A stretch of DNA of 64,000 nt from Paenibacillus terrigena DSM 21567 (lineage in GTDB: Bacteria > Bacillota > Bacilli > Paenibacillales > Paenibacillaceae), in assembly GCF_000374845.1 (NCBI RefSeq), contig NZ_KB895424.1:32360-96359 (forward strand). The letters run 5' to 3'. The position numbers and the translations under genes are program-made. Below, one piece after another: positions 14,341-62,035 of the stretch; positions within the stretch are counted from its first letter, which is position 1, and every line of letters begins with the position of its first letter. The notes below the pieces were generated by a model. That model worked only from the letters and a program-made list of their open reading frames with translations, was not told where the DNA came from and searched no databases.

Positions 14341-14704
14341 GGGGGCGTTCTTGGATTCGACGGGGGTAGTTCGGGCATGAGTAGCGGGTAGTGGGGACGC
14401 GACCGCTTCATCAACGCTAAAGCCTATTAAACGGCAAACAACAAAACAACTTCGCATTAGCAGCTTAATAACCTGTTAGCGAGCTTCGCCTCTGCATCGC
14501 CCATGTGCCGAGACCGGGGCCCAACTTTAGTGGGATACGCTGTCACATCTCCGCCTGGGGTGTGCTGAAGAAGACAATCAGGCTGACCCAAAGTATAGCC
14601 GGTTACGGGGCGATACTCGGGTGACATCAAAACTGTAACTACACCCGTAGAAGCTTATGTTGCGTTATCTTCGGACAGGGGTTCGATTCCCCTCGCCTCC
14701 ACCA
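14341..14704 (+). ncRNA. ssrA: Transfer-messenger RNA (tmRNA)
   Basis: The 5' end GGGGGCG pairs with CGCCTCC before an encoded ACCA, and GGTTCGATTCCCC forms the T arm. The mRNA-like part (14433-14468) reads GGC through GCT and then TAA TAA, giving the tag GKQQNNFALAA after the alanine brought by tmRNA itself. The ALAA end is the ClpXP degradation signal of Gram-positives. Pseudoknot-forming segments lie between the tag and the tRNA-like end. Its 3' end appears to have served as an integration target; see the repeat entries. Confidence 0.97.
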
Positions 14705-14709
14705 ACATG

Positions 14710-14738
14710 AAAAAGGACACCTCAGAGGTGTCCTTTTT
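14710..14738 (+). terminator. ssrA terminator
   Basis: AAAAAGGACACCT and AGGTGTCCTTTTT form a near-perfect stem six bases after the tmRNA CCA. Confidence 0.9.
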
Positions 14739-14767
14739 GCATTGTGTGGAGACGAGACAGGGGATCG

Positions 14768-14975
14768 CCCCTGTCAGGGGTTCAGCCCGCGCGCAGGGAG
14801 CGAAAACAAGGGGTCCCCGCAAAGTAATCGGAAATCGCTGTAAGACTAAGCTTCACTTTGTGGGGTTGAGCATGGGAGCACGGCGTTTATATCCAACCTC
14901 TAATATCGCCGGCGGAGGATAGGCATCGTGAGCAAGTAAGATGGAGATATGAACATTCCCCTCGCCTCCATCATG
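14768..14975 (+). repeat. Post-ssrA repeat, copy A (with ssrA-end-like core)
   Basis: The first part (14768-14803, CTGTCAGGGGTTCAGCCCGC and following bases) recurs at 18331, in part at 19640, and more loosely at 22544. The last 100 bases (14876-14975) match 18395-18494 at about 94 of 100 positions by eye. Within it 14956-14970 repeats the ssrA 3' end TTCCCCTCGCCTCCA exactly. No convincing ORF. I interpret it as a junction left by integration at ssrA. Confidence 0.75.
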
Positions 14976-15005
14976 AAAAGCCCGACCTCACGCGGTCGGG
15001 CTTTT
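14976..15005 (+). terminator. Terminator following repeat copy A
   Basis: AAAAGCCCGACC-TCACGC-GGTCGGGCTTTT. It has no gene directly before it; it follows the ssrA-end-like core as the real terminator follows ssrA. Confidence 0.8.
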
Positions 15006-15019
15006 GATTTGCTCGGAAT

Positions 15020-15091
15020 TGTAGACGGATTGTAGACATCAGATGAAATAGAAGTCTATTTTTTGATTATCCTGTAGACGAAAAGTCTACA
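15020..15091 (+). promoter_or_regulatory. Cluster of TGTAGAC half-sites
   Basis: TGTAGAC occurs at 15020, 15031 and 15073, the last facing GTCTACA at 15085 to give a perfect 19-base palindrome with a five-base centre. A further GTCTA lies at 15054. The cluster is 130-200 bases before the PHP/SLH gene and is probably an operator array for a regulator I cannot name. Confidence 0.5.
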
Positions 15092-15218
15092 AGTTATAGA
15101 AGGGTGTGCTCCCAAGCGATATTTTTACAAATTACTGCAACTCTTTAACATGTAAATTTACAGTTCATCTTTATACTTAAATCGATATCATAATGTATTC
15201 GAAGGGGATTATAACTAC

Positions 15219-17999
15219 ATGAACAGCAAGCTGAAGTCTTTAATTTGTACCTCATTCGCCTTTTTCATGCTCGCACAGAGTATGGCGACGGTGTCTGCAA
15301 CAGGGAACACACCTTCCACCAATTCAACAGGAAGATGGATGTCTGGTGAGTACCATACCCACACCATACAATCGGCAGATGCATCCGAATCTTTTATGAA
15401 ATTGGAAAATGTACTCGACGCTGCGTTTCGAGAGGATCTTGACAATAAGCCTGTAGAAACAGTCACATCACTGACGTACGGCAATCCCTTTGATTTCATC
15501 GTGCTATCTGATCATCTGCGCGATTCACCGCGAGATCCAGATGGTAACAGTAAGCCTACTGCACGTTGGGAAGCGATTAAAGAACAGCAGGACAAGCTTG
15601 CAGCGCTCCAATCTACTGGAAAATACGTAGGTAAATTCATTTATTCTGGCTTCGAATGGGACATGATGGGTTTGGATCATGGTTCTGTTGGTATTATTGA
15701 TTCCAAAAGTAATGAAGTACCCATCGACGCTATTCATCAATTCGAATGGTTGTACAGCTACGATACAACTCCAGGTATGTTTCATTCAAATGAGGATGCT
15801 CTTTGGGGACCGAGACTTGATAAGAATACGTTGAAACTCGATAAAAATAAAACATTTGAAGCCATTGAATGGCTGAAAACGAATTACCCGGAGAGTTATG
15901 TATTGCTTAACCATCCGTCTAGACATAACGGCAGCAGTACGGGTGTTGTCACTATCGAAGACATTCGTAAGATGAATGATATTGCTCCTGAAATTGTGTT
16001 TGGCATGGAAGGGTTGCCGGGTAACCAAATGGCAGCCGGTGGGAATAGATCGGAATTAGCTGACGTATACGGCGGAGCTGATGTCATGGTCGCAAAGGTC
16101 GGCGGAATGTGGGATGCCATGCTTGGTGAAGGTCGCCACTTCTGGAACTTCACAAATTCCGACTTTCATTTTAAGGTGAGCAGCAATCGGAGTTATTCAA
16201 GCGGTTACTGGCCTAGCGAGTACTCGCGAAACAATACTTGGGTCGAGGGTAATACCTTCAAAGATATTGTTGAGGGTATGCGTTCAGGTAAATCTTATGC
16301 GGTTTATGGCGATCTCATCAATGCGCTTGACTTCAAAGCTACTGGAAATGGCGCTCAAGCTGAAATGGGCGAGAACCTACAGGTAACCGAAGGGGATCTT
16401 ACAACAATCAGCATTCGCTTTAAGAGCCCAGAGCACAACAATTACGCACCAATCAGCCCGCATAATACCTCAGTCACTAATGATACCAAAGTAGATCATG
16501 TCGATCTAATCTCTGGAGAAGTGACTGGTAAGCTCGATGAAAGTCAATATGCCAGCAATACAACCAATGCCACGACGAAAGTCATTAAACGCTTTACCCA
16601 AGACGATTGGGGACAACCCGATGCCGAAGGCTATTATACTGTCTCTTATAAGGTGCCTGCGGATACAAACCGTTATTATCGTTTGCGCGGTACGAATCTG
16701 GGTACAGACGTAGCAGGCTTTACAGCTAGCGGAGAGCCTTTACAAGATCAATCATTTGATAGGGGTAGTGACACGCCGGAGCAGAACGAGGAACGCTTCA
16801 ATAATATTAATGACCGTAACTATACAGGATTGTGGTTTTATTCCAACCCGATCTTTGTTGATGTCACCGCACTCAGTGATGAGCAGGCAGTTAACGATAC
16901 GATTACTAGTGTAACTTCAACACTTGGTGATACAAGTGCGATTACCACTAACATTCCCCTTCCTTCTGAAGGATTGCATGGTACACAGATTGAATGGAAG
17001 AGCAGTAATACGAATGTCATTCGCATCGACAACAACACCGCGGTTGTTACACGTCCATCCTCTGACATGGGGGATATGAGTATCACACTAACTGCAACGA
17101 TCTCTCGCGGGGATCACAGCGTAAATAAACCGTACACCTTTATCGTTAGAGCCAACCCTTCTAACAATTCGTCAGGCAATAGCTCGTCATCAGGCAATAC
17201 TTCGCCAGGCAACAACTCTAGCAAGCCGAATGCGTCTGTCTCAGGTGGTGGAGGGACAGTTACTGCTGATTCGAATGGCAATATTACAATAACACCTGAT
17301 AAAGGTTACCAGGTTAAAGATGTTACGATCAATGGGATATCTAAGGGAGCACTCACTCAATTGACAGGTATGAAATCTTCTGATCAAGTTGTTGTGACTT
17401 TCGAGAAGCTTCCGGAGCAACCTCAGAAGCCAACTGAGCCTGCTAAACCTGTTGTTACTTTTAGTGATGTTTCGAATCACTGGGCGGTTTCATCCATTAA
17501 CTATGTTGTGGAGCATGGATTGTTCACGGGTACCGCGCCAAATACGTTTAGCCCGAACCAAACTATGACTCGTGGTATGCTGGTCACGGTTATGCACCGC
17601 TTAGCTGGTAAACCAGAAGTAGGGTCAAGTCACTTCAAAGATGTTAATACGAATGCCTATTACAGTGATGCGGTAGCTTGGGCAAGTCAGAATAACATTG
17701 TCCATGGGGTTGATAGTAGTCACTTTGCTCCAGATCGACCGATTACTCGTGAACAACTTGTACAGATGCTCTTCAATTATGCAAAAGCAAACCAATTGAA
17801 TGTTAACGCTAGCCAGTCATTAGTCGCTTTCACAGATGCGAAGAAAATCTCAGCTTGGGCAGTTGATGCCATGAAGTGGTCCGTAAGCAACCAGTTACTT
17901 TCTGGTAAGGGTAATGGCATGCTGGATCCGACGGGTGCTGTATCACGTGCTGAAGTCGCAGCAATTATTAATCGTTTTATGACTACCTTTAACATGTAA
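15219..17999 (+). CDS. Secreted PHP-domain phosphoesterase with SLH anchor
   Basis: Probably a metal-dependent phosphoesterase displayed on the cell wall. Residues 1-28 are a signal peptide (hydrophobic FAFFMLAQSMATVSA). From about 40 to 360 there is a PHP/CehA-like domain with metal ligands in GEYHTHT, VLSDHLR, FHSNED, LNHPSR and FTNSDFHF. A beta-rich central part follows, then an atypical Ig-like domain (about 560-650, IEWKSSNTNVI), a Ser/Asn/Gly linker, a GGG-type repeat, and three SLH domains (about 745-925, SDVSNHWAVSSINYVVEHGL being the first) that bind pyruvylated wall polysaccharide. The gene sits alone between ssrA-like repeats. Natural substrate unknown. Confidence 0.85.
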   Translation: MNSKLKSLICTSFAFFMLAQSMATVSATGNTPSTNSTGRWMSGEYHTHTIQSADASESFMKLENVLDAAFREDLDNKPVETVTSLTYGNPFDFIVLSDHLRDSPRDPDGNSKPTARWEAIKEQQDKLAALQSTGKYVGKFIYSGFEWDMMGLDHGSVGIIDSKSNEVPIDAIHQFEWLYSYDTTPGMFHSNEDALWGPRLDKNTLKLDKNKTFEAIEWLKTNYPESYVLLNHPSRHNGSSTGVVTIEDIRKMNDIAPEIVFGMEGLPGNQMAAGGNRSELADVYGGADVMVAKVGGMWDAMLGEGRHFWNFTNSDFHFKVSSNRSYSSGYWPSEYSRNNTWVEGNTFKDIVEGMRSGKSYAVYGDLINALDFKATGNGAQAEMGENLQVTEGDLTTISIRFKSPEHNNYAPISPHNTSVTNDTKVDHVDLISGEVTGKLDESQYASNTTNATTKVIKRFTQDDWGQPDAEGYYTVSYKVPADTNRYYRLRGTNLGTDVAGFTASGEPLQDQSFDRGSDTPEQNEERFNNINDRNYTGLWFYSNPIFVDVTALSDEQAVNDTITSVTSTLGDTSAITTNIPLPSEGLHGTQIEWKSSNTNVIRIDNNTAVVTRPSSDMGDMSITLTATISRGDHSVNKPYTFIVRANPSNNSSGNSSSSGNTSPGNNSSKPNASVSGGGGTVTADSNGNITITPDKGYQVKDVTINGISKGALTQLTGMKSSDQVVVTFEKLPEQPQKPTEPAKPVVTFSDVSNHWAVSSINYVVEHGLFTGTAPNTFSPNQTMTRGMLVTVMHRLAGKPEVGSSHFKDVNTNAYYSDAVAWASQNNIVHGVDSSHFAPDRPITREQLVQMLFNYAKANQLNVNASQSLVAFTDAKKISAWAVDAMKWSVSNQLLSGKGNGMLDPTGAVSRAEVAAIINRFMTTFNM

Positions 18000-18034
18000 C
18001 AATAAATACCATTTTCAAATGGACAAAAGTGCAC

Positions 18035-18084
18035 CTTCCCTCGCCTCCATACTGAAAACCCAGTCCCCACAAGGGCTGGGTTTT
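18035..18084 (+). repeat. ssrA-end-like core plus terminator (third copy)
   Basis: CTTCCCTCGCCTCCA at 18035-18049 repeats the ssrA 3' end with one base missing. It is followed by a terminator, AAAACCCAG..CTGGGTTTT (18054-18084), of different stem sequence, directly after the PHP/SLH gene. Confidence 0.7.
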
Positions 18085-18108
18085 CTATGTGTAAAGAAGA
18101 GAAAAATC

Positions 18109-18330
18109 CTATTTTGCATGCTTATCTGGCTGATGAATACCAAATACATTTCCTTCTGTGTCAATGTAATACCCTTGCCATGCCATTCCAGGCAGTGCAT
18201 ACTTTGGTAATGCGAGCTTGCCTCCGAGATTAAGAATTTTAGTTTCAGTAGAATCATAGTCTTCTACTCCCATAGTACATGCATAACCATTCATAGCCTG
18301 TCCAGGTTGGGGGGAAGCACCTTGACGTTC
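18109..18330 (-). pseudogene. Truncated VOC (glyoxalase-fold) gene copy
   Basis: This encodes the C-terminal 70 or so residues of a VOC protein, ending QGYYIDTEGNVFGIHQPDK, nearly identical to the intact gene at 19719-20114. The upstream frame runs RQGASPQPGQA and then homology stops abruptly at 18330, where it meets the CTGTCAGG repeat. The N-terminal half, including its start, is missing, so it is unlikely to make a working protein. It marks a partial duplication whose breakpoint coincides with the repeat. Confidence 0.85.
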
Positions 18331-18494
18331 CTGTCAGGGTTCAGTCCGCGCGCAGGGAGCGAATGAGATGCTTCGGAGGGGTAGCTTCGCGAACGAGCAC
18401 GGCGTTTATATCCCACCTCTAATATCGTCTGCGGAGGATGGGCATCGTGAGCAAGTAAGATGGAGATATGAACATTCCCCTCGCCTCCACCATG
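18331..18494 (+). repeat. Post-ssrA repeat, copy B
   Basis: Second copy of the 14768-14975 unit, shortened in the middle. It starts with CTGTCAGGGTTCAGTCCGC, continues with the 100-base block (18395-18494) and includes TTCCCCTCGCCTCCA (18475-18489), again identical to the ssrA end, and CCACCATG. The left edge is the breakpoint of the truncated VOC gene. Confidence 0.75.
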
Positions 18495-18498
18495 TAAA

Positions 18499-18526
18499 TC
18501 CACAACCGCATGAGGTTGTGGGTTTT
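18499..18526 (+). terminator. Terminator following repeat copy B
   Basis: ATCCACAACC-GCATGA-GGTTGTGGGT with T run. The 20 bases CACCATGTAAATCCACAACC just before and within it recur exactly at 30194. Confidence 0.8.
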
Positions 18527-18726
18527 TGCCATCGTTCAATAACCATCTATGGATTTATACACTTTCTGGATAGCCTGCACTAAGTTAGTCAGAAAAAATA
18601 AGGGCTAGTAAAATGAAGGCAACAGAGAGAAAGGATCGCGGAAAATTAGCGCCTTTGCTTCGATAAGTTCATCTGAATAGGACCAGTCCTAGTCTAAAGT
18701 CTAGGTTCAGTCACCCCCTAAGACGG

Positions 18727-18755
18727 TTATGTCAGGCAAATAAGGCGGATATAAT
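18727..18755 (+). promoter_or_regulatory. Probable promoter of the sensor-domain gene
   Basis: TTATGT and TATAAT with a 17-base spacer. Upstream, CCTAG and CTAGG (18688-18705) form a small inverted repeat. The rest of 18527-18726 shows nothing recognisable. Confidence 0.5.
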
Positions 18756-18804
18756 GGATTTATAACTCAGAACGTGACTTATGAAGCTAAAGGAGTGTTT
18801 GAAA

Positions 18805-19596
18805 ATGAAGGGAATAGACGCGACAGCAATGGCGCAGTCAGGGAAGGTGCGTTGGGTGCTTTTTAATCCAAAAACCTATGCAACGATTCTCTATTTATTG
18901 TTATCCCTCCCATTAGGGATTATCTATTTTTCAGTAGCGATAACGGGACTTGCACTATCCATCAGTTTAACCCCAATATTTATCGGAATACCGCTGTTTT
19001 TTGGAGTAGCTAAGCTGTTGAATGGGATTGTGAATTTTGAACAAAACATAATTAGACAAATTTTAGGTTTACCTACGCCACCTGTTTCATTAACCTACAA
19101 CCGACAGTCTGAAGCTGGGCAGAACTGGTTGATGCGAATGATGAGAGGTTTTGACGGGGCGCTATTTATTCGAAACCTGCTACTCGTATTACTTAGATTT
19201 ATAACAGGCATTGTATTCTTTACTATTATGGTAACGGTGATTTCGCTAGGACTAGGATTGATTGCTCTTCCAGTCGTGCATATCATTTTGATGAATGAAA
19301 TGCAGCTTGATATTTTAGAGAATAGCTTGTTTAGTTATTTTCATATAGATTGGACCTATAATCAGCAATATCTGTTGTACGTAGGAGTTGGCCTTGTACT
19401 TTTTTGGATCGCGCTTCGCGTCGTGAACGGGCTCATGCAAGTTCAGCGCAGAATCATGTATGTGGATGAGCCATATCAGCAGCCGTCAGTACCAGTGGAA
19501 GCACAAATACATGCGACGGTTCAGCCGCAATATTATGAGTACCAAGAGGATCAGCCTACTCAAGGGAAGATGCAGCCAGCCTATAGAGAGCTTTAA
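18805..19596 (+). CDS. Membrane protein with putative sensor domain
   Basis: A 263-residue integral membrane protein with four hydrophobic segments (about 33-55, 58-80, 125-160 and 193-215), of the kind found as the N-terminal 'putative sensor' domain of some histidine kinases and as stand-alone proteins in Firmicutes. The conserved pattern LSLPLGIIYFSV..GLALSISLTPIFIGIPL supports this. The C-terminal 50 residues are polar, rich in Gln, Pro and Tyr, and cytosolic in appearance. ATG at 18805 follows AAAGGAGTG; an upstream ATG at 18781 would cover that site. No kinase domain is attached or adjacent. The stop codon lies inside the terminator stem. Function unknown. Confidence 0.75.
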   Translation: MKGIDATAMAQSGKVRWVLFNPKTYATILYLLLSLPLGIIYFSVAITGLALSISLTPIFIGIPLFFGVAKLLNGIVNFEQNIIRQILGLPTPPVSLTYNRQSEAGQNWLMRMMRGFDGALFIRNLLLVLLRFITGIVFFTIMVTVISLGLGLIALPVVHIILMNEMQLDILENSLFSYFHIDWTYNQQYLLYVGVGLVLFWIALRVVNGLMQVQRRIMYVDEPYQQPSVPVEAQIHATVQPQYYEYQEDQPTQGKMQPAYREL

Positions 19597-19609
19597 AAGC
19601 TCTCTTTTT
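19585..19609 (+). terminator. Terminator overlapping the sensor-domain stop codon
   Basis: AGAGAGCTTT pairs with AAAGCTCTCT and T5 follows; the TAA at 19594-19596 is within the hairpin. Confidence 0.8.
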
Positions 19610-19626
19610 GTGTGGCGTGATCTTCT

Positions 19627-19699
19627 GACAGGGGTTGCCCCTGTCAGGGGTTCAGTCCGCCTTCAGTTAAAAAGCCCGACCTCACACGATCGGGCTTTT
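19627..19699 (+). repeat. Post-ssrA repeat, partial copy C, with terminator
   Basis: GACAGGGGTTGCCCCTGTCAG and TTCAGTCCGC resemble the first part of copies A and B, then the sequence jumps into AAAAAGCCCGACCTCAC..GATCGGGCTTTT (19669-19699), similar to the terminator after copy A. The ssrA-end core is missing. On the minus strand the same hairpin can end the VOC gene. Confidence 0.65.
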
Positions 19700-19718
19700 G
19701 CCTATGCAATGAAAAATA

Positions 19719-20114
19719 TTATTTTGCGTTCTTATCTGGCTGATGGATGCCAAATACATTTCCCTCAGTGTCAATGTAATACCCTTGCCAAGCCATTCCG
19801 GGGAGTGCGTACTTTGGTAATGCGACCTTGCCTCCAAGACTAACAATTTTTTCTTCAGTAGAATCGTAGTCCCCCACTCCAATTGTACATGCATAACCAT
19901 TCATAGCCTGACCTGGTTCTGGAGAGGCCCCTTGACGTTGCATCAAAGCCCCGTTGATTCCAAGTTCATTTTCAGTGCCCGTAACAGCTCCAAAATAGGG
20001 CATTCCAGCATAAGTGCTCCAATCCTCAAATGTCCATCCAAATACCTCTCCATAAAACTTCTTGGCACGCTCCATGTCATCTACATGAATCTCGAAATGA
20101 ACTATTCTGCCCAT
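19719..20114 (-). CDS. VOC-family (glyoxalase/bleomycin-resistance fold) protein
   Basis: A 131-residue protein of the VOC superfamily, which binds a metal and acts in lyase, dioxygenase or antibiotic-binding roles. It begins MGRIVHFEIHVDDMERAKKF, a standard first beta-alpha-beta module, with FYGEVFGWTFEDW, and ends YIDTEGNVFGIHQ. His in HFEIHVDD and a Glu or Gln in the second module could be metal ligands. Start ATG is preceded by AGGAGG on the minus strand. A truncated near-identical copy lies at 18109-18330. It points away from the MarR gene; specific substrate unknown. Confidence 0.85.
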   Translation of the reverse strand: MGRIVHFEIHVDDMERAKKFYGEVFGWTFEDWSTYAGMPYFGAVTGTENELGINGALMQRQGASPEPGQAMNGYACTIGVGDYDSTEEKIVSLGGKVALPKYALPGMAWQGYYIDTEGNVFGIHQPDKNAK

Positions 20115-20229
20115 GATTATTACCTCCTACGTAATGGTTTTCTTTAATCTTTTATTATGCATTCTTTTTGATTCTCCTTCTTCATTATTGTAATTAATTT
20201 AGGAATTATTCAGGGGTTCCTGCGACAAT

Positions 20230-20275
20230 TTGAAGAAAATCATTTGGTCATATATAATAAGGTTACAAACAAATA
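20230..20275 (+). promoter_or_regulatory. marR promoter with operator-like site
   Basis: TTGAAG (20230) and TATAAT (20253) are spaced by 17 bases. GGTC-N10-AGGTTAC (20246-20266) followed by AAAC covers the -10 region and start point. The same GGTC-N10-AGGTTAC core, same spacing, occurs twice more at 20811 and 20914, so this looks like an autoregulated promoter. Confidence 0.7.
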
Positions 20276-20334
20276 AGATGGTGGACAATATCGATATAAA
20301 TAGAGAGAATAATATTATTTTTAACCAAGAAAAA

Positions 20335-20790
20335 ATGTCGAAACAACATACTCAATTAGATACCCAATCGTTAACGACTCTTATTTTCCTCATGGAGAGT
20401 TCGCATGAAATATTTAAAGAAATAACTGTTCATCTTTCCAAATTTGGACTTTCAGTGGCGAAAGTAAAAGTACTACAGACACTTTTCAGTGAAGAAAAGC
20501 CAATGATGCCATCTGAATTAGCGAAAAATTCCGGTGTTTCGAGATCAACGATGACCGGATTACTGGATGGTCTTGAACGTGACGGCTTGATCTATAAAGG
20601 AGAAGGGGATGATCGCAGAATTACCCTTATTTCTATATCAGAAGCGGGAGTAAATCTCATGAATACGCTGCAGCCTTACTATGCAGCCCTTGCTGACAAA
20701 ATTACCAGTGACGTAACAAAAGAGGAACAGGATTTATTGGCTCAACTATTAGTGAAGTTGAAGCGCAGTTTAGAAGGACAGAAAGGTTAA
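20335..20790 (+). CDS. MarR-family transcriptional regulator
   Basis: A winged-helix dimeric repressor, expected to release DNA on binding a small phenolic or lipophilic ligand or on thiol oxidation. With ATG at 20335 it has 151 residues. The wHTH region spans about residues 42-105, with the recognition helix in MMPSELAKNSGVSRSTMTGLLDGLERDGL and the wing at YKGEGDDRRITL (DDRR motif is the family hallmark). Starts further upstream fall in or next to the promoter at 20230-20258 and are rejected; an ATG at 20278 cannot be excluded. It sits ahead of an SDR and a ketosteroid-isomerase-like gene and shares operator-like sites with them. Confidence 0.88.
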   Translation: MSKQHTQLDTQSLTTLIFLMESSHEIFKEITVHLSKFGLSVAKVKVLQTLFSEEKPMMPSELAKNSGVSRSTMTGLLDGLERDGLIYKGEGDDRRITLISISEAGVNLMNTLQPYYAALADKITSDVTKEEQDLLAQLLVKLKRSLEGQKG

Positions 20791-20804
20791 TTTTTTTTCG
20801 TAAA

Positions 20805-20837
20805 TAGTTCGGTCCCGCATTATCAGGTTACGAACTA
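20805..20837 (+). promoter_or_regulatory. Putative MarR operator 2
   Basis: TAGTTCG and CGAACTA form a perfect 7-base inverted repeat around GTCCCG..AGGTTA. The 28 bases 20810-20837 match 20913-20940 at 25 of 28 positions. Confidence 0.6.
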
Positions 20838-20905
20838 TATTTCTCTGTCCTACACTTTTCTTCTTTTTGCTTAAGAACAAACATAGAAGTCGTATCTTTT
20901 GCTCA

Positions 20906-20940
20906 TATAATACGGTCCCGTACTATCAGGTTACCAACTA
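20906..20940 (+). promoter_or_regulatory. SDR-gene -10 box and putative MarR operator 3
   Basis: TATAAT at 20906 is followed at once by CGGTCCCGTACTATCAGGTT and ACCAACTA. No good -35 is visible at 17 bases upstream. Binding here would block the SDR transcript. Copy 2 is 103 bases upstream. Confidence 0.6.
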
Positions 20941-21059
20941 AAATGAAGGGAGGTGGTAGGAAAATAAATCATCGTAGTTGTAGAGTGGCATATGATTTTT
21001 GAATTTACTCGATGCTGTGTTTAAGTGGAAAAAAATGTGACAAAAAAGGAGTGACAAGA

Positions 21060-21812
21060 ATGGGACGTCTAGAAAATAAAGTTGCAATTATTACGGGTTC
21101 TGCCGGAGGGCAAGGAAAAGCGGAGGCAATTCTTTTCGCAAAAGAAGGAGCCAAAGTAGTCGTAACAGATGTGCAGGAAGACAAAGTTAATCAAGTCGTA
21201 GCTATCATCAAGGAAAATGGCGGGGATGCAATTGGCTTTTACCATAACGTGGCATCCGAAGATAACTGGATTCAAGTGGTTAAAGATACGGTTAAAGCCT
21301 TTGGTAAAGTGGACGTCCTCGTGAACAATGCGGGTATTACCAGTAATATACCGCTTATTGATACCCCACTTGAACAATGGAACAAAGTGATCGACATCAA
21401 CTTAACAGGCACTTTTCTTGGCATGAAACATGTGATTCCAGTAATGCTGGAAAATGGGGGTGGTTCCATTGTTAACATTTCATCCATTGCTGGATTAACT
21501 GGCGGCAGTGGAGCCGGTGCCTATACAGCTTCAAAAGGAGCAATTCGACTTTTCACAAAGGCGGCAGCTATTGATTATGCTAAGCAAAATATCCGAGTGA
21601 ACTCCGTTCATCCGGGCTATATTGAAACACCGATGACAGAGGCATTCTTTTCGAATGAGCAGATGCTGAACTGGTTTAAGGCAGCTACGCCTCTTCCATA
21701 CCTCGGGAAACCGGAAGACATCGCTGAAGGTGTCCTATATCTTGCTTCAGATGAATCTAAATTTGTAACAGGCATTGAACTCCCGATTGATGGGGGATAT
21801 TCAGCACAGTAG
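21060..21812 (+). CDS. Short-chain dehydrogenase/reductase, hydroxysteroid-dehydrogenase-like
   Basis: A classical SDR of 250 residues that should oxidise or reduce an alcohol/ketone with NAD(H). Seen: cofactor motif TGSAGGQGKAEA, acidic VVTDVQED after the second strand (favours NAD over NADP), NNAG, catalytic Ser in NISSIAG, YTASK, and the C-terminal PIDGGYSAQ. ATG at 21060 follows AAAAAGGAGTGACAAGA. It precedes a gene that keeps the catalytic residues of ketosteroid isomerase, so a 3-beta- or 3-alpha-hydroxysteroid or similar cyclic alcohol is a reasonable but unproven substrate. Confidence 0.9.
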   Translation: MGRLENKVAIITGSAGGQGKAEAILFAKEGAKVVVTDVQEDKVNQVVAIIKENGGDAIGFYHNVASEDNWIQVVKDTVKAFGKVDVLVNNAGITSNIPLIDTPLEQWNKVIDINLTGTFLGMKHVIPVMLENGGGSIVNISSIAGLTGGSGAGAYTASKGAIRLFTKAAAIDYAKQNIRVNSVHPGYIETPMTEAFFSNEQMLNWFKAATPLPYLGKPEDIAEGVLYLASDESKFVTGIELPIDGGYSAQ

Positions 21813-21888
21813 GGAATTGGTGCTCAACATCCAATTAAAGGGAACAGACAGTTTTACCCAAATTAAAATTGAGAAGGGAACGAATAAT

Positions 21889-22266
21889 ATGTCAACACAA
21901 TCCGAAATGAAAGCCGTAATGCAAAAATACCTCGACGCATTTAATGCCCAAGATGCAGATGCAGTCCTTGCGCTCTATGCCGAAAATGCGACGGTCGAGG
22001 ACCCAGTCGGTTCCCCACCGTTACAAGGCAAGGAGGCCATTGGCGCATTCTATCAGAAGGTTATACCTATGGGTAGCAAACTTAAATTGGCTGCCCCAAT
22101 CCGCGGATCCCATAGCAACTCGGCAGCGATGGCATTTGTGGTAGAAAGTGCCATGGACGGTCATACGGTCAATATCAATGTCATCGATGTCATGACGTTT
22201 GATGAATCCGGCAAAATTACCAGCATGCGAGCATATTGGGGTAAGGAAGACTGCAATATCCTGTAA
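21889..22266 (+). CDS. Ketosteroid-isomerase-like (SnoaL/NTF2 fold) protein
   Basis: With ATG at 21889 (GAAGGGAACG upstream) the protein has 125 residues, the same length as Comamonas delta5-3-ketosteroid isomerase. Tyr14 and Asp38 (TVEDPVGSPP) fall at the same numbers as the catalytic residues of that enzyme, and Asp100 (VIDVMTFD) aligns with its Asp99. KSI moves a C5-C6 double bond into conjugation with a 3-keto group. The upstream SDR could supply that ketone. Other NTF2-fold isomerases or hydrolases remain possible. Gene overlaps nothing and starts 76 bases after the SDR stop, probably in one transcript. Confidence 0.82.
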   Translation: MSTQSEMKAVMQKYLDAFNAQDADAVLALYAENATVEDPVGSPPLQGKEAIGAFYQKVIPMGSKLKLAAPIRGSHSNSAAMAFVVESAMDGHTVNINVIDVMTFDESGKITSMRAYWGKEDCNIL

Positions 22267-22332
22267 TTCCAATGATAACGTGCTGATATTATTGCACATT
22301 GATTATCCTAGAATTCCAGAAAAACTCCAAAA

Positions 22333-22368
22333 GGGGACAGGCGTGTATTCATGGCCATGTCCCCCTGT
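22333..22368 (+). terminator. Possible terminator after the KSI-like gene
   Basis: GGGGACA and TGTCCCC can pair across a loop of about 20 bases. No clear T run. Confidence 0.4.
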
Positions 22369-22463
22369 TGTTGAGAAACATATGCCGCACCGATGGCAAC
22401 TGTGGACGGCGTACTATTATGTTATCGTGACCAAGCCGAATGGTGGATTTTCCAAGCCATGGT

Positions 22464-22575
22464 TCGCCTCCACCAAAAAGCTGAACACCCAGACCGCATG
22501 AGGTCTGGGTGTCCTTTTTGCATTGGAGGAGTCTCGGGGGGGCGAACCCTGGGTTCAGGCCGCGCGGCGGATAGT
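22464..22575 (+). repeat. ssrA-end-like core, terminator and partial repeat D
   Basis: TCGCCTCCACCA (22464-22475) repeats the last bases of ssrA including CCA. A terminator follows (ACACCCAGACC-GCATGA-GGTCTGGGTGT then CCTTTTTGCATTG), and TCCTTTTTGCATTG is identical to the sequence after the real ssrA terminator. Next comes GGGTTCAGGCCGCGCGGCGG, related to the start of repeat A. This is the clearest duplicate of the whole ssrA 3' flank. Confidence 0.75.
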
Positions 22576-22577
22576 GA

Positions 22578-23228
22578 TTACTTTCCGTGGATAAGATACG
22601 GGCTCAATCCCGTTGCAATCAGGCGATGCCCCCGATCATTGGGGTGAATGGGCAGAGATCCGCTTAACGCATCTTCAATTTTTCCGTTGCGATATCCATA
22701 GATAAGATTGGCCTGTCTTCCTTCAAACCACATATGAGCAGGGGCTACTGTGGCATCATAACGACGAGCTGTGTCTTGTATGATACGATTAAATTGGCTG
22801 ATCGACTCGACTGCAAGAGAGCTGTTCGGAAATGGATTGTACTGCGTGCAGCAAATGATTCGGGCACGGCTTCTTTTTTTGATCAGAGTGAGAAGTGAGC
22901 ATAAATTTCGGCTGTAGTTAGTTGCAAGTTGTTTGGCAGGTAAGGGGGATTGGCTTCTAAGGGAAGAAATCGCGGCATTCGCTAAATCTACTCCTCCGAT
23001 CCATATAGAAACCACATCCGATTGATGAATCATTGAGGCGCCTCGCCATAACACTGCATCTAATAAATTTTTGCTGGTCCAACCAGACCGAGCCAGAACA
23101 TGCCCAGTAACCTTACGGGAGCGTGTGTTTAATGCAGATACTATCAATTGGGGATAAGCATTTACTTTGGAGGAGGCATCTTTCCCAAATGTAATGGAAT
23201 CCCCAAGAGCTGTATAGATCATAGGCAT
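22578..23228 (-). CDS. SGNH/GDSL-family hydrolase
   Basis: A 216-residue esterase-type hydrolase without signal peptide. Block I ALGDSITFG holds the nucleophile serine, block II the glycine RSGWTSKNLL, and block V IHPNDRGHRLIA could give the catalytic histidine. Block III, normally GxND, reads IGGVDLAN, so the oxyanion-hole asparagine is replaced by valine or shifted. Start ATG at 23228; a second ATG at 23222 is possible. Its 3' end meets repeat D. Substrate unknown, activity uncertain because of block III. Confidence 0.82.
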   Translation of the reverse strand: MPMIYTALGDSITFGKDASSKVNAYPQLIVSALNTRSRKVTGHVLARSGWTSKNLLDAVLWRGASMIHQSDVVSIWIGGVDLANAAISSLRSQSPLPAKQLATNYSRNLCSLLTLIKKRSRARIICCTQYNPFPNSSLAVESISQFNRIIQDTARRYDATVAPAHMWFEGRQANLIYGYRNGKIEDALSGSLPIHPNDRGHRLIATGLSPYLIHGK

Positions 23229-23380
23229 ATCACCAACCTAATGTTCAAATTTGTGCTTGTTTGTGTAGTGCATCATATAGATATAATAGTGTAATCATGT
23301 ACAAGTTGTGTGGACATTAACAACGAATCCATCAATATGAGCGTTTGCTAGTAATTCTCGGAATAAAGGCAAAGTAAGAG

Positions 23381-23420
23381 GTGACATCAAAACTGTGATT
23401 GCACAAGTAGAAGCCTATGT
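23381..23420 (+). pseudogene. Diverged tmRNA fragment
   Basis: GTGACATCAAAACTGT at 23381-23396 is identical to tmRNA 14621-14636, and the 40 bases to 23420 match tmRNA 14621-14660 at 34 positions, including GTAGAAGC and TATGT. Similarity fades afterwards. This tmRNA segment lies 45-85 bases before the CCA end, outside the short core seen at the other copies. The rest of 23229-23653 contains an AT-rich stretch with TATAATAG (23289) but no convincing gene. Confidence 0.65.
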
Positions 23421-23653
23421 GTCTTGGACAAAAGAAAAATATCACCATTCTTTGTAAAAGGAGATGCATACGATGATTCGAACCTTTCCATTTTAGTAGT
23501 ATGAAGAGCCATCGGCCATTTAGCTTTGGTAGGTGGTTTTTTAATTATGATCAGTTTAGATACAAGATAATTAGCCTGCAGGAATACCTGCAACTCAAGT
23601 CAAATATGTCTTTATCCTGCTTGGTATGATGGAGTCGAAAGGAGGGAAGCTAC

Positions 23654-61854: not shown

Positions 61855-61929
61855 AGTCAATGTAAATAGTTCCTTTATCCTACTTTAGACCTACATAGTG
61901 TCCATCTGCAACGACTAGAATTATATATT

Positions 61930-62000
61930 TCGGCACACTAATCGAAAGGTTAGGTCGCAAAGCCTCGGAGTCTAATGGTCTTTGACCTATGATCGTCCGG
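61930..62000 (+). promoter_or_regulatory. c-di-GMP-I riboswitch (GEMM-I)
   Basis: GGCACACTAATC-GAAA-GGTTAGGTCGCAAAGCC has the P1b arrangement of the class: a GGC/GCC pair around an ACA/CGCAAA internal loop, a six-pair stem and a GAAA tetraloop, matching GGCAAACC..GAAA..GACGCAAAGCC of Vibrio Vc2. It continues with GGAGTCTAATGG, a GGTC-TTT-GACC arm, and CCTATGATCGTCCGG, the usual UAUGAU.GcCGG end. It senses cyclic di-GMP. Located ahead of an adhesin-like gene, a frequent target of this class. Confidence 0.85.
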
Positions 62001-62035
62001 CTGCAATTACATCGTTATTGCAGCCGGACTTTTTT
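61995..62035 (+). terminator. Expression-platform terminator of the riboswitch
   Basis: GTCCGGCTGCAAT pairs with ATTGCAGCCGGAC over a nine-base loop, followed by T6. Its 5' arm includes GTCCGG from the 3' end of the aptamer, so the ligand-bound fold and the terminator exclude each other; this predicts an ON switch. Confidence 0.85.

What the first reader, a model, noticed from the sequence alone, without database searches (positions are those of the whole stretch)
14687..23440. Gene modules bracketed by copies of the ssrA 3' end
Directly seen: the ssrA 3' end motif (TTCCCCTCGCCTCCA or shorter TCGCCTCCA) recurs at 14956, 18035, 18475 and 22464, always followed within a few bases by a terminator hairpin whose stem differs each time. 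Between the copies lie separate gene modules (PHP/SLH protein; truncated VOC; sensor/VOC/MarR-SDR-KSI). ssrA is a known integration site for islands and phages, whose integration duplicates the 3' end. Inference: repeated insertions at ssrA built an array of small cassettes each ending in an att core plus terminator. No integrase is present, so a trans-acting or lost enzyme is needed. This serial, integrase-free arrangement is the most unusual structure in the window.
Basis: partly seen in the sequence, partly recalled or inferred. Interest (0 to 1): 0.8.

Follow-up and report, generated by a model that had tools for sequence, protein, structure and literature searches.

The report
Gene cassettes stacked behind ssrA
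Behind the tmRNA gene ssrA of a Paenibacillus relative lie stacked small gene modules, each starting at a copy of the ssrA end followed by its own terminator; one junction block, predicted to fold, is found in 120 of 394 genomes of the family and begins 64-89 bp behind ssrA or one alanine tRNA gene in 45 of 47 genes checked, so the stack was likely built by repeated site-specific insertion, with the recombinase likely supplied from elsewhere.

Summary
In detail: TCGCCTCCA occurs five times in the window, on one strand, all within 7.8 kb of ssrA (0.43 expected), each followed by its own terminator. In 80 genomes, copies of the ssrA 3' end lie downstream on the ssrA strand 43 times, against 1, 1 and 5 in control positions. 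Terminators show empty-site states: the one behind window copy 18481 stands directly behind ssrA in G007 and G005, the one behind 22464 in G001. Two junction families appear. Type A (14776-14970, 18335-18489) is a ~130-nt block with covariation and no Rfam match, in 120 of 394 genomes; it begins 64-89 bp behind ssrA or tRNA-Ala(ggc) in 45 of 47 genes checked. Type B (22436-22472) occurs in 52 of 148 genomes, in places as arrays of 1-2 kb modules with defence genes; large serine recombinase genes overlap the ssrA end in four loci. Serial ssrA islands without integrase (Dehalococcoides) and composite SCC islands are known; the two end families, the covarying block and its second home at tRNA-Ala are new as far as searched. 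Mobility and the type A enzyme are inferred, not shown.

The parts
14341..14704 (+). ssrA (tmRNA), the platform gene; its 3' end 14693-14701 is the first core
14710..14738 (+). terminator behind ssrA; 96% the same behind a displaced core in G002
14776..14970 (+). type A block of the first, cargo-less unit, ending in a copy of the ssrA 3' end (14956-14970)
   Evidence: E 1.8e-30; this copy is one of the 11 the model was built from
14976..15005 (+). terminator opening the SLH module; a near-identical stem opens the homologous module in G155 (L287)
15219..17999 (+). cargo: 926-aa SLH / aBig_2 protein (PHP label not confirmed by Pfam)
18036..18049 (+). core copy whose left side fits neither type A nor type B
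18055..18084 (+). terminator behind core 18041
18101..18329 (-). cargo: truncated VOC gene copy
   Evidence: 86% to 19711-19939
18335..18489 (+). type A block ending in ssrA 3' end copy 18475-18489
   Evidence: E 8.9e-32; also in the model's seed
18496..18527 (+). terminator; 89% and 85% to the one directly behind ssrA in G007 and G005 (empty-site state)
18781..19596 (+). cargo: Sensor-domain (PF13796) protein; its DNA is 95.5% in G001 and 93.8% in G002, with different left neighbours
19608..19660 (+). degenerate ssrA 3' end relic, followed by terminator 19670-19699
19719..20114 (-). cargo: VOC (glyoxalase-fold) protein
20230..22266 (+). cargo: MarR regulator, SDR, SnoaL-like genes
22436..22472 (+). 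type B right end (22436-22466, 31 of 66 model positions) running into core 22464-22472
   Evidence: E 8.9e-6, filters off, model built without this copy; not listed in the stricter search
22482..22518 (+). terminator; 96% to the one directly behind ssrA in G001
23380..23420 (+). ssrA relic (85%), no core left

Best explanation
The window holds ssrA followed by four more copies of its 3' end, each with its own terminator, and this stack was likely built by serial site-specific insertion of small integrase-less modules at ssrA, with recombinases likely acting in trans. Shown: the copies, the terminators, displaced terminators in relatives, no recombinase in the array, and recurrence in related genomes downstream and on the ssrA strand. 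Inferred: a circular module carries core, terminator, cargo and right end; recombination at the core puts the module between ssrA and its old terminator, so ssrA keeps a complete 3' end and gains the module's terminator, while the old core and old terminator move downstream. Each core would then mark one past insertion, the youngest next to ssrA. Type B ends are likely half-sites of a large serine recombinase of SCC/DsiB style; the enzyme for type A ends is unknown.
For: Strand and position control in 80 genomes: 43 copies of the genome's own ssrA 9-mer within 9 kb downstream on +, against 1 (down, -), 1 (up, +), 5 (up, -); 28 of 43 have a terminator, 0 of 7 control copies. Displaced terminators among G000, G001, G002, G005 and G007, up to 96% identical; median of 120 pairs 62%. 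Module order and content differ between G000, G001 and G002 with cores or core relics at the breaks. Of the five close homologues of the SLH module outside the window genome, L287 and L288 follow an ssrA-type core or ssrA relic plus terminator and L290 a degenerate one; L289 and L291 do not. Type A, distinct genes only: 102 blocks behind 47 genes, all on the gene's strand; the exact 13-mer of the own gene's end follows 51 of 102 blocks, that of the other gene class 1 of 102. Type B: 110 hits in 52 of 148 genomes, 86 downstream of ssrA, 86 of 86 on its strand.
Against: No excision, circle or transfer was seen. No recombinase lies in the window array. Of 72 type A cargo proteins scanned (of 92 frames) no recombinase family is among the 25 of 111 Pfam families shown. 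24 of 110 type B hits lie elsewhere, at least two of them in other islands where type B is about 80 bp from the end copy, so type B may not be a simple att half-site. The first type A unit has no cargo in 45 of 47 genes, which plain random insertion does not predict. With 12 of 13 letters allowed, the other gene's end fits 34 of 102 blocks against 74 for the own gene. Core 18041 fits neither family.
Confidence: 0.52

Rival explanations
1. The modules are decayed remains of ordinary full-size ssrA islands (ICE, IME, SCC-like) that lost their integrase and most genes by deletion; nothing ever moved as a small integrase-less cassette.
For: Elements with recombinases sit at ssrA in relatives: serine recombinases, a tyrosine integrase 172 bp behind ssrA in L092, and one in G009 between ssrA and a distal core. 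The window has a truncated gene and two degenerate ssrA relics.
Against: Cargo-less units of about 200 bp repeated in tandem and arrays of 0.9-2.1 kb modules with type B ends in G005 and G010 are hard to get by independent deletions.
Confidence: 0.3
2. The type A block is a resident structured RNA of ssrA and tRNA-Ala(ggc) 3' regions, and its extra copies and the core copies arose by tandem duplication and homologous exchange, not by site-specific recombination.
For: First block 64-89 bp behind the gene in 45 of 47 distinct genes, and 30 of 55 block spacings are 108-316 bp; L247 and L255 units nearly identical; covariation.
Against: 25 of 55 spacings are 1.2-13 kb with genes between; new terminators at each core; type B and unclassified cores in the same array are not explained.
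Confidence: 0.15
3. The 9-mer recurs by chance or as part of a common terminator motif.
For: None beyond the shortness of the 9-mer.
Confidence: 0.01

Closest known systems
Dehalococcoides ssrA genomic islands (ssrA-GIs, DsiB), PMC3146451 (passages read)
   Same: Tandem islands downstream of ssrA, each bounded by a 20-bp copy of the ssrA 3' end; 15 of 31 lack the integration module; a CcrB-like serine recombinase whose gene overlaps attL; a 15-bp motif upstream of the repeat; accretion of cis-mobilizable elements proposed.
   Different: Other phylum. In the passages read I saw no terminator exchange (the word terminator has 0 occurrences in the main text), no folded block, no second platform at tRNA-Ala and no single-gene arrays.
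Composite SCC / SCC-like islands with large serine recombinases, PMC10061031 (passages read)
   Same: Serine recombinase, primase-helicase genes, tandem composites at rlmH (one in P. pinistramenti), ssrA used as site in C. difficile and C. perfringens; the G157 element has the recombinase plus a 1012-aa protein that looks primase-helicase-like (by eye).
   Different: The window array has no recombinase; type A ends and the tRNA-Ala platform are not part of what I read on SCC.
Integron gene cassettes (recalled)
   Same: Head-to-tail small modules, end sites all in one orientation, folded end site, enzyme outside the cassette; one type B module encodes a VCH_CASS14 homologue.
   Different: No IntI, attI or attC shown; platform is a tmRNA or tRNA gene.
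Group I introns in the tmRNA T-loop, PMC11915505 (passages read)
   Same: In two displaced ssrA copies of L141 the type A block interrupts the T-loop.
   Different: Block about 130 nt, no Rfam group I hit, the functional ssrA is uninterrupted.

Membership tests
ssrA genomic islands / cis-mobilizable elements (accretion) | tandem units downstream of ssrA, each bounded by a copy of the ssrA 3' end | tested here: met
ssrA genomic islands / cis-mobilizable elements (accretion) | units without own recombinase | tested here: met
   none of 15 PF00589 hits of the genome is on contig C13; no tyrosine integrase or serine recombinase fragment found in the window's frames; 3 of 4 own-genome PF07508 hits are listed, none on C13
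ssrA genomic islands / cis-mobilizable elements (accretion) | excision and transfer with a neighbouring element | not testable with these tools
   needs bench or read data
SCC-like serine recombinase islands | large serine recombinase at the island's boundary | tested here: not met
   absent in the window array; present in relatives G005, L131, L091, L144
SCC-like serine recombinase islands | type B end forms the far boundary of a recombinase-bearing element | tested here: inconclusive
   fits G157; G005 has five class 2 sites before one class 1 site; in G072 and G154 type B lies about 80 bp from the presumed rlmH-type end
Integron | tyrosine integrase beside the array | tested here: not met
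   none in the window; a 187-aa single-domain tyrosine recombinase lies in the G002 array and in 124 of 394 genomes but not in G000 and G001, which carry type A
Integron | folded end sites, all in one orientation | tested here: met
   type A covariation and strand; RNA and ssDNA folding not told apart
Group I intron of tmRNA | group I core structure | tested here: not met

The most novel reading that the evidence does not exclude
Paenibacillaceae carry an unrecognised integron-like cassette system whose platforms are ssrA and tRNA-Ala(ggc): a resident folded block sits 64-89 bp behind the gene, cassettes that end in the same folded block and in a copy of the platform gene's 3' end are added behind it, and defence and adaptive genes are shuffled by an enzyme still to be found.
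Probability: 0.3. Interest if true: 0.9.

Novelty: new variant of a known kind. Interest (0 to 1): 0.7.

Why it matters
It would give Firmicutes a cassette-stacking route comparable to integrons, at a gene nearly every bacterium has, with a simple way to spare the host gene (each module brings a new 3' end and terminator). The type A block is a compact, widespread, testable object without an Rfam match, and the arrays hold defence genes (Thoeris, a KwaB-like protein, AbiH, restriction enzymes), so they are a place to look for new ones.

Tried and rejected
Chance motif: rejected. Phage or plasmid attachment site: no match of one type A block in phages, of another in plasmids, of one type B end in phages and plasmids, and no exact match of two degenerate patterns in viral contigs. 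Known RNA family: besides tmRNA and permuted-tmRNA partial matches only weak matches below the gathering scores. Small tyrosine recombinase as required enzyme for type A: not supported, absent from G000 and G001. Energy of four single blocks is not unusual (z -1.43 to 0.17); the case for structure rests on covariation. Counts replaced: a 17-mer comparison of core and gene end gave 0 exact matches and 10 of 52 inverted 8-mers at 7 of 8 or better against 3.9 in shuffles, because T-loop bases differ and some cores lie further off; the 13-mer and local-alignment counts were then recounted on distinct genes, since 5 of the 52 genes had been fetched twice. Rows dropped there: a doubtful tmRNA call in L226, a second one in L243, a tRNA-Lys in L246; L283 had no block; loci without a platform gene in range were left out (among the scanned ones L217, L218, L228, L229, L233, L234, L236, L237, L240, L241, L251, L252, L257, L258, L260, L261, L264, L269, L273, L282), and L219 was not scanned. 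Class 1/2/other of type B contexts (63/20/10 of 93) rests on loose regular expressions of mine. Paper searches listed nothing that, by title and start of abstract, describes either end family; I read passages of three papers only, and the library is open-access only.

Full report
Check of the observation. ssrA is at 14341-14704. The 9-mer TCGCCTCCA occurs five times in the 64-kb window, all on the + strand, at 14693, 14962, 18041, 18481 and 22464; 0.43 are expected and 0 of 100 shuffles reach five. In the 6.36-Mb genome the 10-mer CTCGCCTCCA occurs 13 times, four of them here; the reversed control occurs 4 times. A hairpin with a T run follows each copy and the stems differ. Two further degenerate ssrA 3' ends lie at 19608-19660 and 23380-23420.

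Is it general? One genome scan gave 80 named loci around smpB; 79 held ssrA, and with the window that makes 80 genomes. Taking for each its own ssrA 3' 9-mer, 43 copies lie within 9 kb downstream on the ssrA strand, in 27 of 80 genomes, against 1 on the other strand downstream, 1 and 5 upstream; 28 of 43 are followed by a terminator and 0 of the 7 control copies. A profile of the ssrA 3' end finds downstream copies in 36 of 88 regions, and none upstream or on the other strand.

Empty sites. The 45 nt behind each core were compared in G000 (window), G001, G002 (contig length equal to P. selenitireducens ES3-24), G007, G005 and G010. The terminator directly behind ssrA in the window is 96% identical to the one behind the second core of G002, displaced there by a 203-bp unit. 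The terminator behind window core 18481 is 89% and 85% identical to the one directly behind ssrA in G007 and G005. The terminator behind 22464 is 96% identical to the one directly behind ssrA in G001. The median over 120 pairs is 62%. Each of these looks like a less filled state of the same site. Module order differs: sensor (94-96%), VOC (76-79%) and GDSL (95% and 78%) DNA is shared with G001 and G002, but with other neighbours and with cores or core relics at several junctions.

The SLH module. In 57 of 295 genomes there is a homologue of the first 566 residues at E 1e-60 or better. The five closest outside the window genome (86-90%) are in other genera. In L287 and L288 an ssrA-type core or ssrA relic plus terminator stands upstream, in L290 a degenerate one with a similar terminator; in L289 and L291 I saw none. 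G155 (L287) and G363 (L290) carry it on the ssrA contig, about 115 kb and 20 kb downstream of ssrA.

Type A ends. The 95 bp before cores 14962 and 18481 are part of a block of about 130 nt. A model built from 11 copies (R2) finds 120 of 394 Paenibacillaceae genomes, the own one included. The platform genes found in the fetched loci were tmRNA or tRNA-Ala(ggc); about twenty of the scanned loci had no such gene in range, and one also held a tRNA-Lys. One search counted 52 genes and 111 blocks, 111 of 111 on the gene's strand; five genes had been fetched twice. On distinct genes: 25 ssrA and 22 tRNA-Ala(ggc), 102 blocks; the nearest block begins 64-89 bp behind the 3' end in 25 of 25 ssrA and 20 of 22 tRNA-Ala (the others 113 and 1098 bp). 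The loci were chosen for having a block, not for its distance. The exact 13-mer of the own gene's end follows 51 of 102 blocks, that of the other gene class 1 of 102; with 12 of 13 letters the figures are 74 and 34, and 8 in a control stretch 200-290 nt further on. An inverted copy of the gene's 3' end lies between gene and block: at most 5 of 100 shuffles reach its score in 40 of 47 loci. So one unit reads: terminator, inverted gene end, block, gene end. Of 55 spacings between blocks 30 are 108-316 bp and 25 are 1.2-13 kb. Covariation: a 9-bp helix is paired in 94.9% of cells with 19 double changes on 11 sequences, slid controls 18-49% and 0-2; over 93 distinct sequences 91% of cells are paired with 251 double changes, slid controls 28-45% with 24-74 (that alignment was fitted to the structure). 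Against shuffled columns the number of pairs with a double change is only mildly high (31 of 500 and 12 of 500 shuffles reach it) and the number of pair types is not high in the first set (369 of 500) and is in the second (5 of 500). G-U pairs occur, so RNA or one DNA strand could be the folding molecule. No Rfam family fits. In L141 two of five blocks interrupt displaced ssrA fragments in the T-loop.

Type B ends. A 66-bp end with the core CGGCGAATTGTGGwTTTGCnCAkCCACGGTTCG was found behind modules of many relatives. A model built without the window copy (R1) finds it in 52 of 148 genomes, 110 hits; 86 are downstream of ssrA within 130 kb and all 86 share its strand; 24 lie elsewhere, 16 of them on another contig. 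The window copy was not listed in that strict search; with filters off it scores E 8.9e-6 over 31 of 66 positions at 22436-22466. Of 93 distinct contexts, 63 run into a CCTCCA-type core, 20 into a conserved hairpin that resembles an inverted type B, 10 into neither. In G005 six and in G010 five type B sites follow each other at 0.9-2.1 kb (once 4.6 kb), and only the last runs into the ssrA core. Cargo in G010 and G005 includes a ScaI-type endonuclease, a TnsA-like nuclease, an HNH protein and a KwaB-like protein; sites off the ssrA contig have AbiH (G072) and, before the first type B of G046, Vsr and a homologue of integron cassette protein VCH_CASS14. Of the other off-contig regions fetched, G057, G106 and G108 hold ssrA relics; G046 and G144 remain unexplained.

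Enzymes. Picked by eye from the cut listing, recombinase domains lie within 16 kb downstream of ssrA in 15 genomes, antisense in 7 and sense in 8. In G157 the first type B end behind this gene lies 17.4 kb from ssrA. The overlap matches DsiB of Dehalococcoides (PMC3146451). For type A no enzyme was found: 72 of 92 cargo frames were scanned and the 25 of 111 families shown hold no site-specific recombinase, though one transposase-type nuclease family (PF12784) is there and IS-like frames are seen by eye in L141 and L165.

Mechanism and limits. Most likely each module entered at the gene's 3' end by site-specific recombination and carried a new 3' end and terminator, so the gene stayed whole. 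Type B likely uses a serine recombinase in trans. Insertion, excision and the enzymes are inferred. The constant cargo-less first type A unit may be a fixed platform, as attI is in integrons; that is the novel reading and is not proved. Serial ssrA islands, islands without integrase and composite SCC islands are known; the type A block, its use of tRNA-Ala(ggc) and the type B arrays did not turn up in the searches made.

Noticed in passing
G000:C3:333000-345000 (L246): The same genome has a second type A array behind tRNA-Ala(ggc), two blocks about 5.5 kb apart with a LuxR-like and an oxidoreductase-like gene (by eye) between them.
   Followed up: partly
L248:2123-4703: A Thoeris system (ThsA and two ThsB by PADLOC models) is cargo between type A blocks behind tRNA-Ala(ggc) in G005.
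   Followed up: partly
G012, G019, G043: Two full-length tmRNA genes in tandem, starts 484-489 bp apart.
   Followed up: no
L247, third unit: A type A unit is interrupted right after its terminator by a sequence that looks like a group II intron 5' end (by eye).
   Followed up: no
L199:5311-5652: A module before a type B site, off the ssrA contig of G046, encodes a homologue of the Vibrio integron cassette protein VCH_CASS14.
   Followed up: no
G072, G154 (L202, L203): Type B sites lie about 80 bp before an end that reads like the RlmH C-terminus, so probably in rlmH islands.
   Followed up: partly
window 61922-62008: c-di-GMP-I riboswitch aptamer.
   Followed up: no
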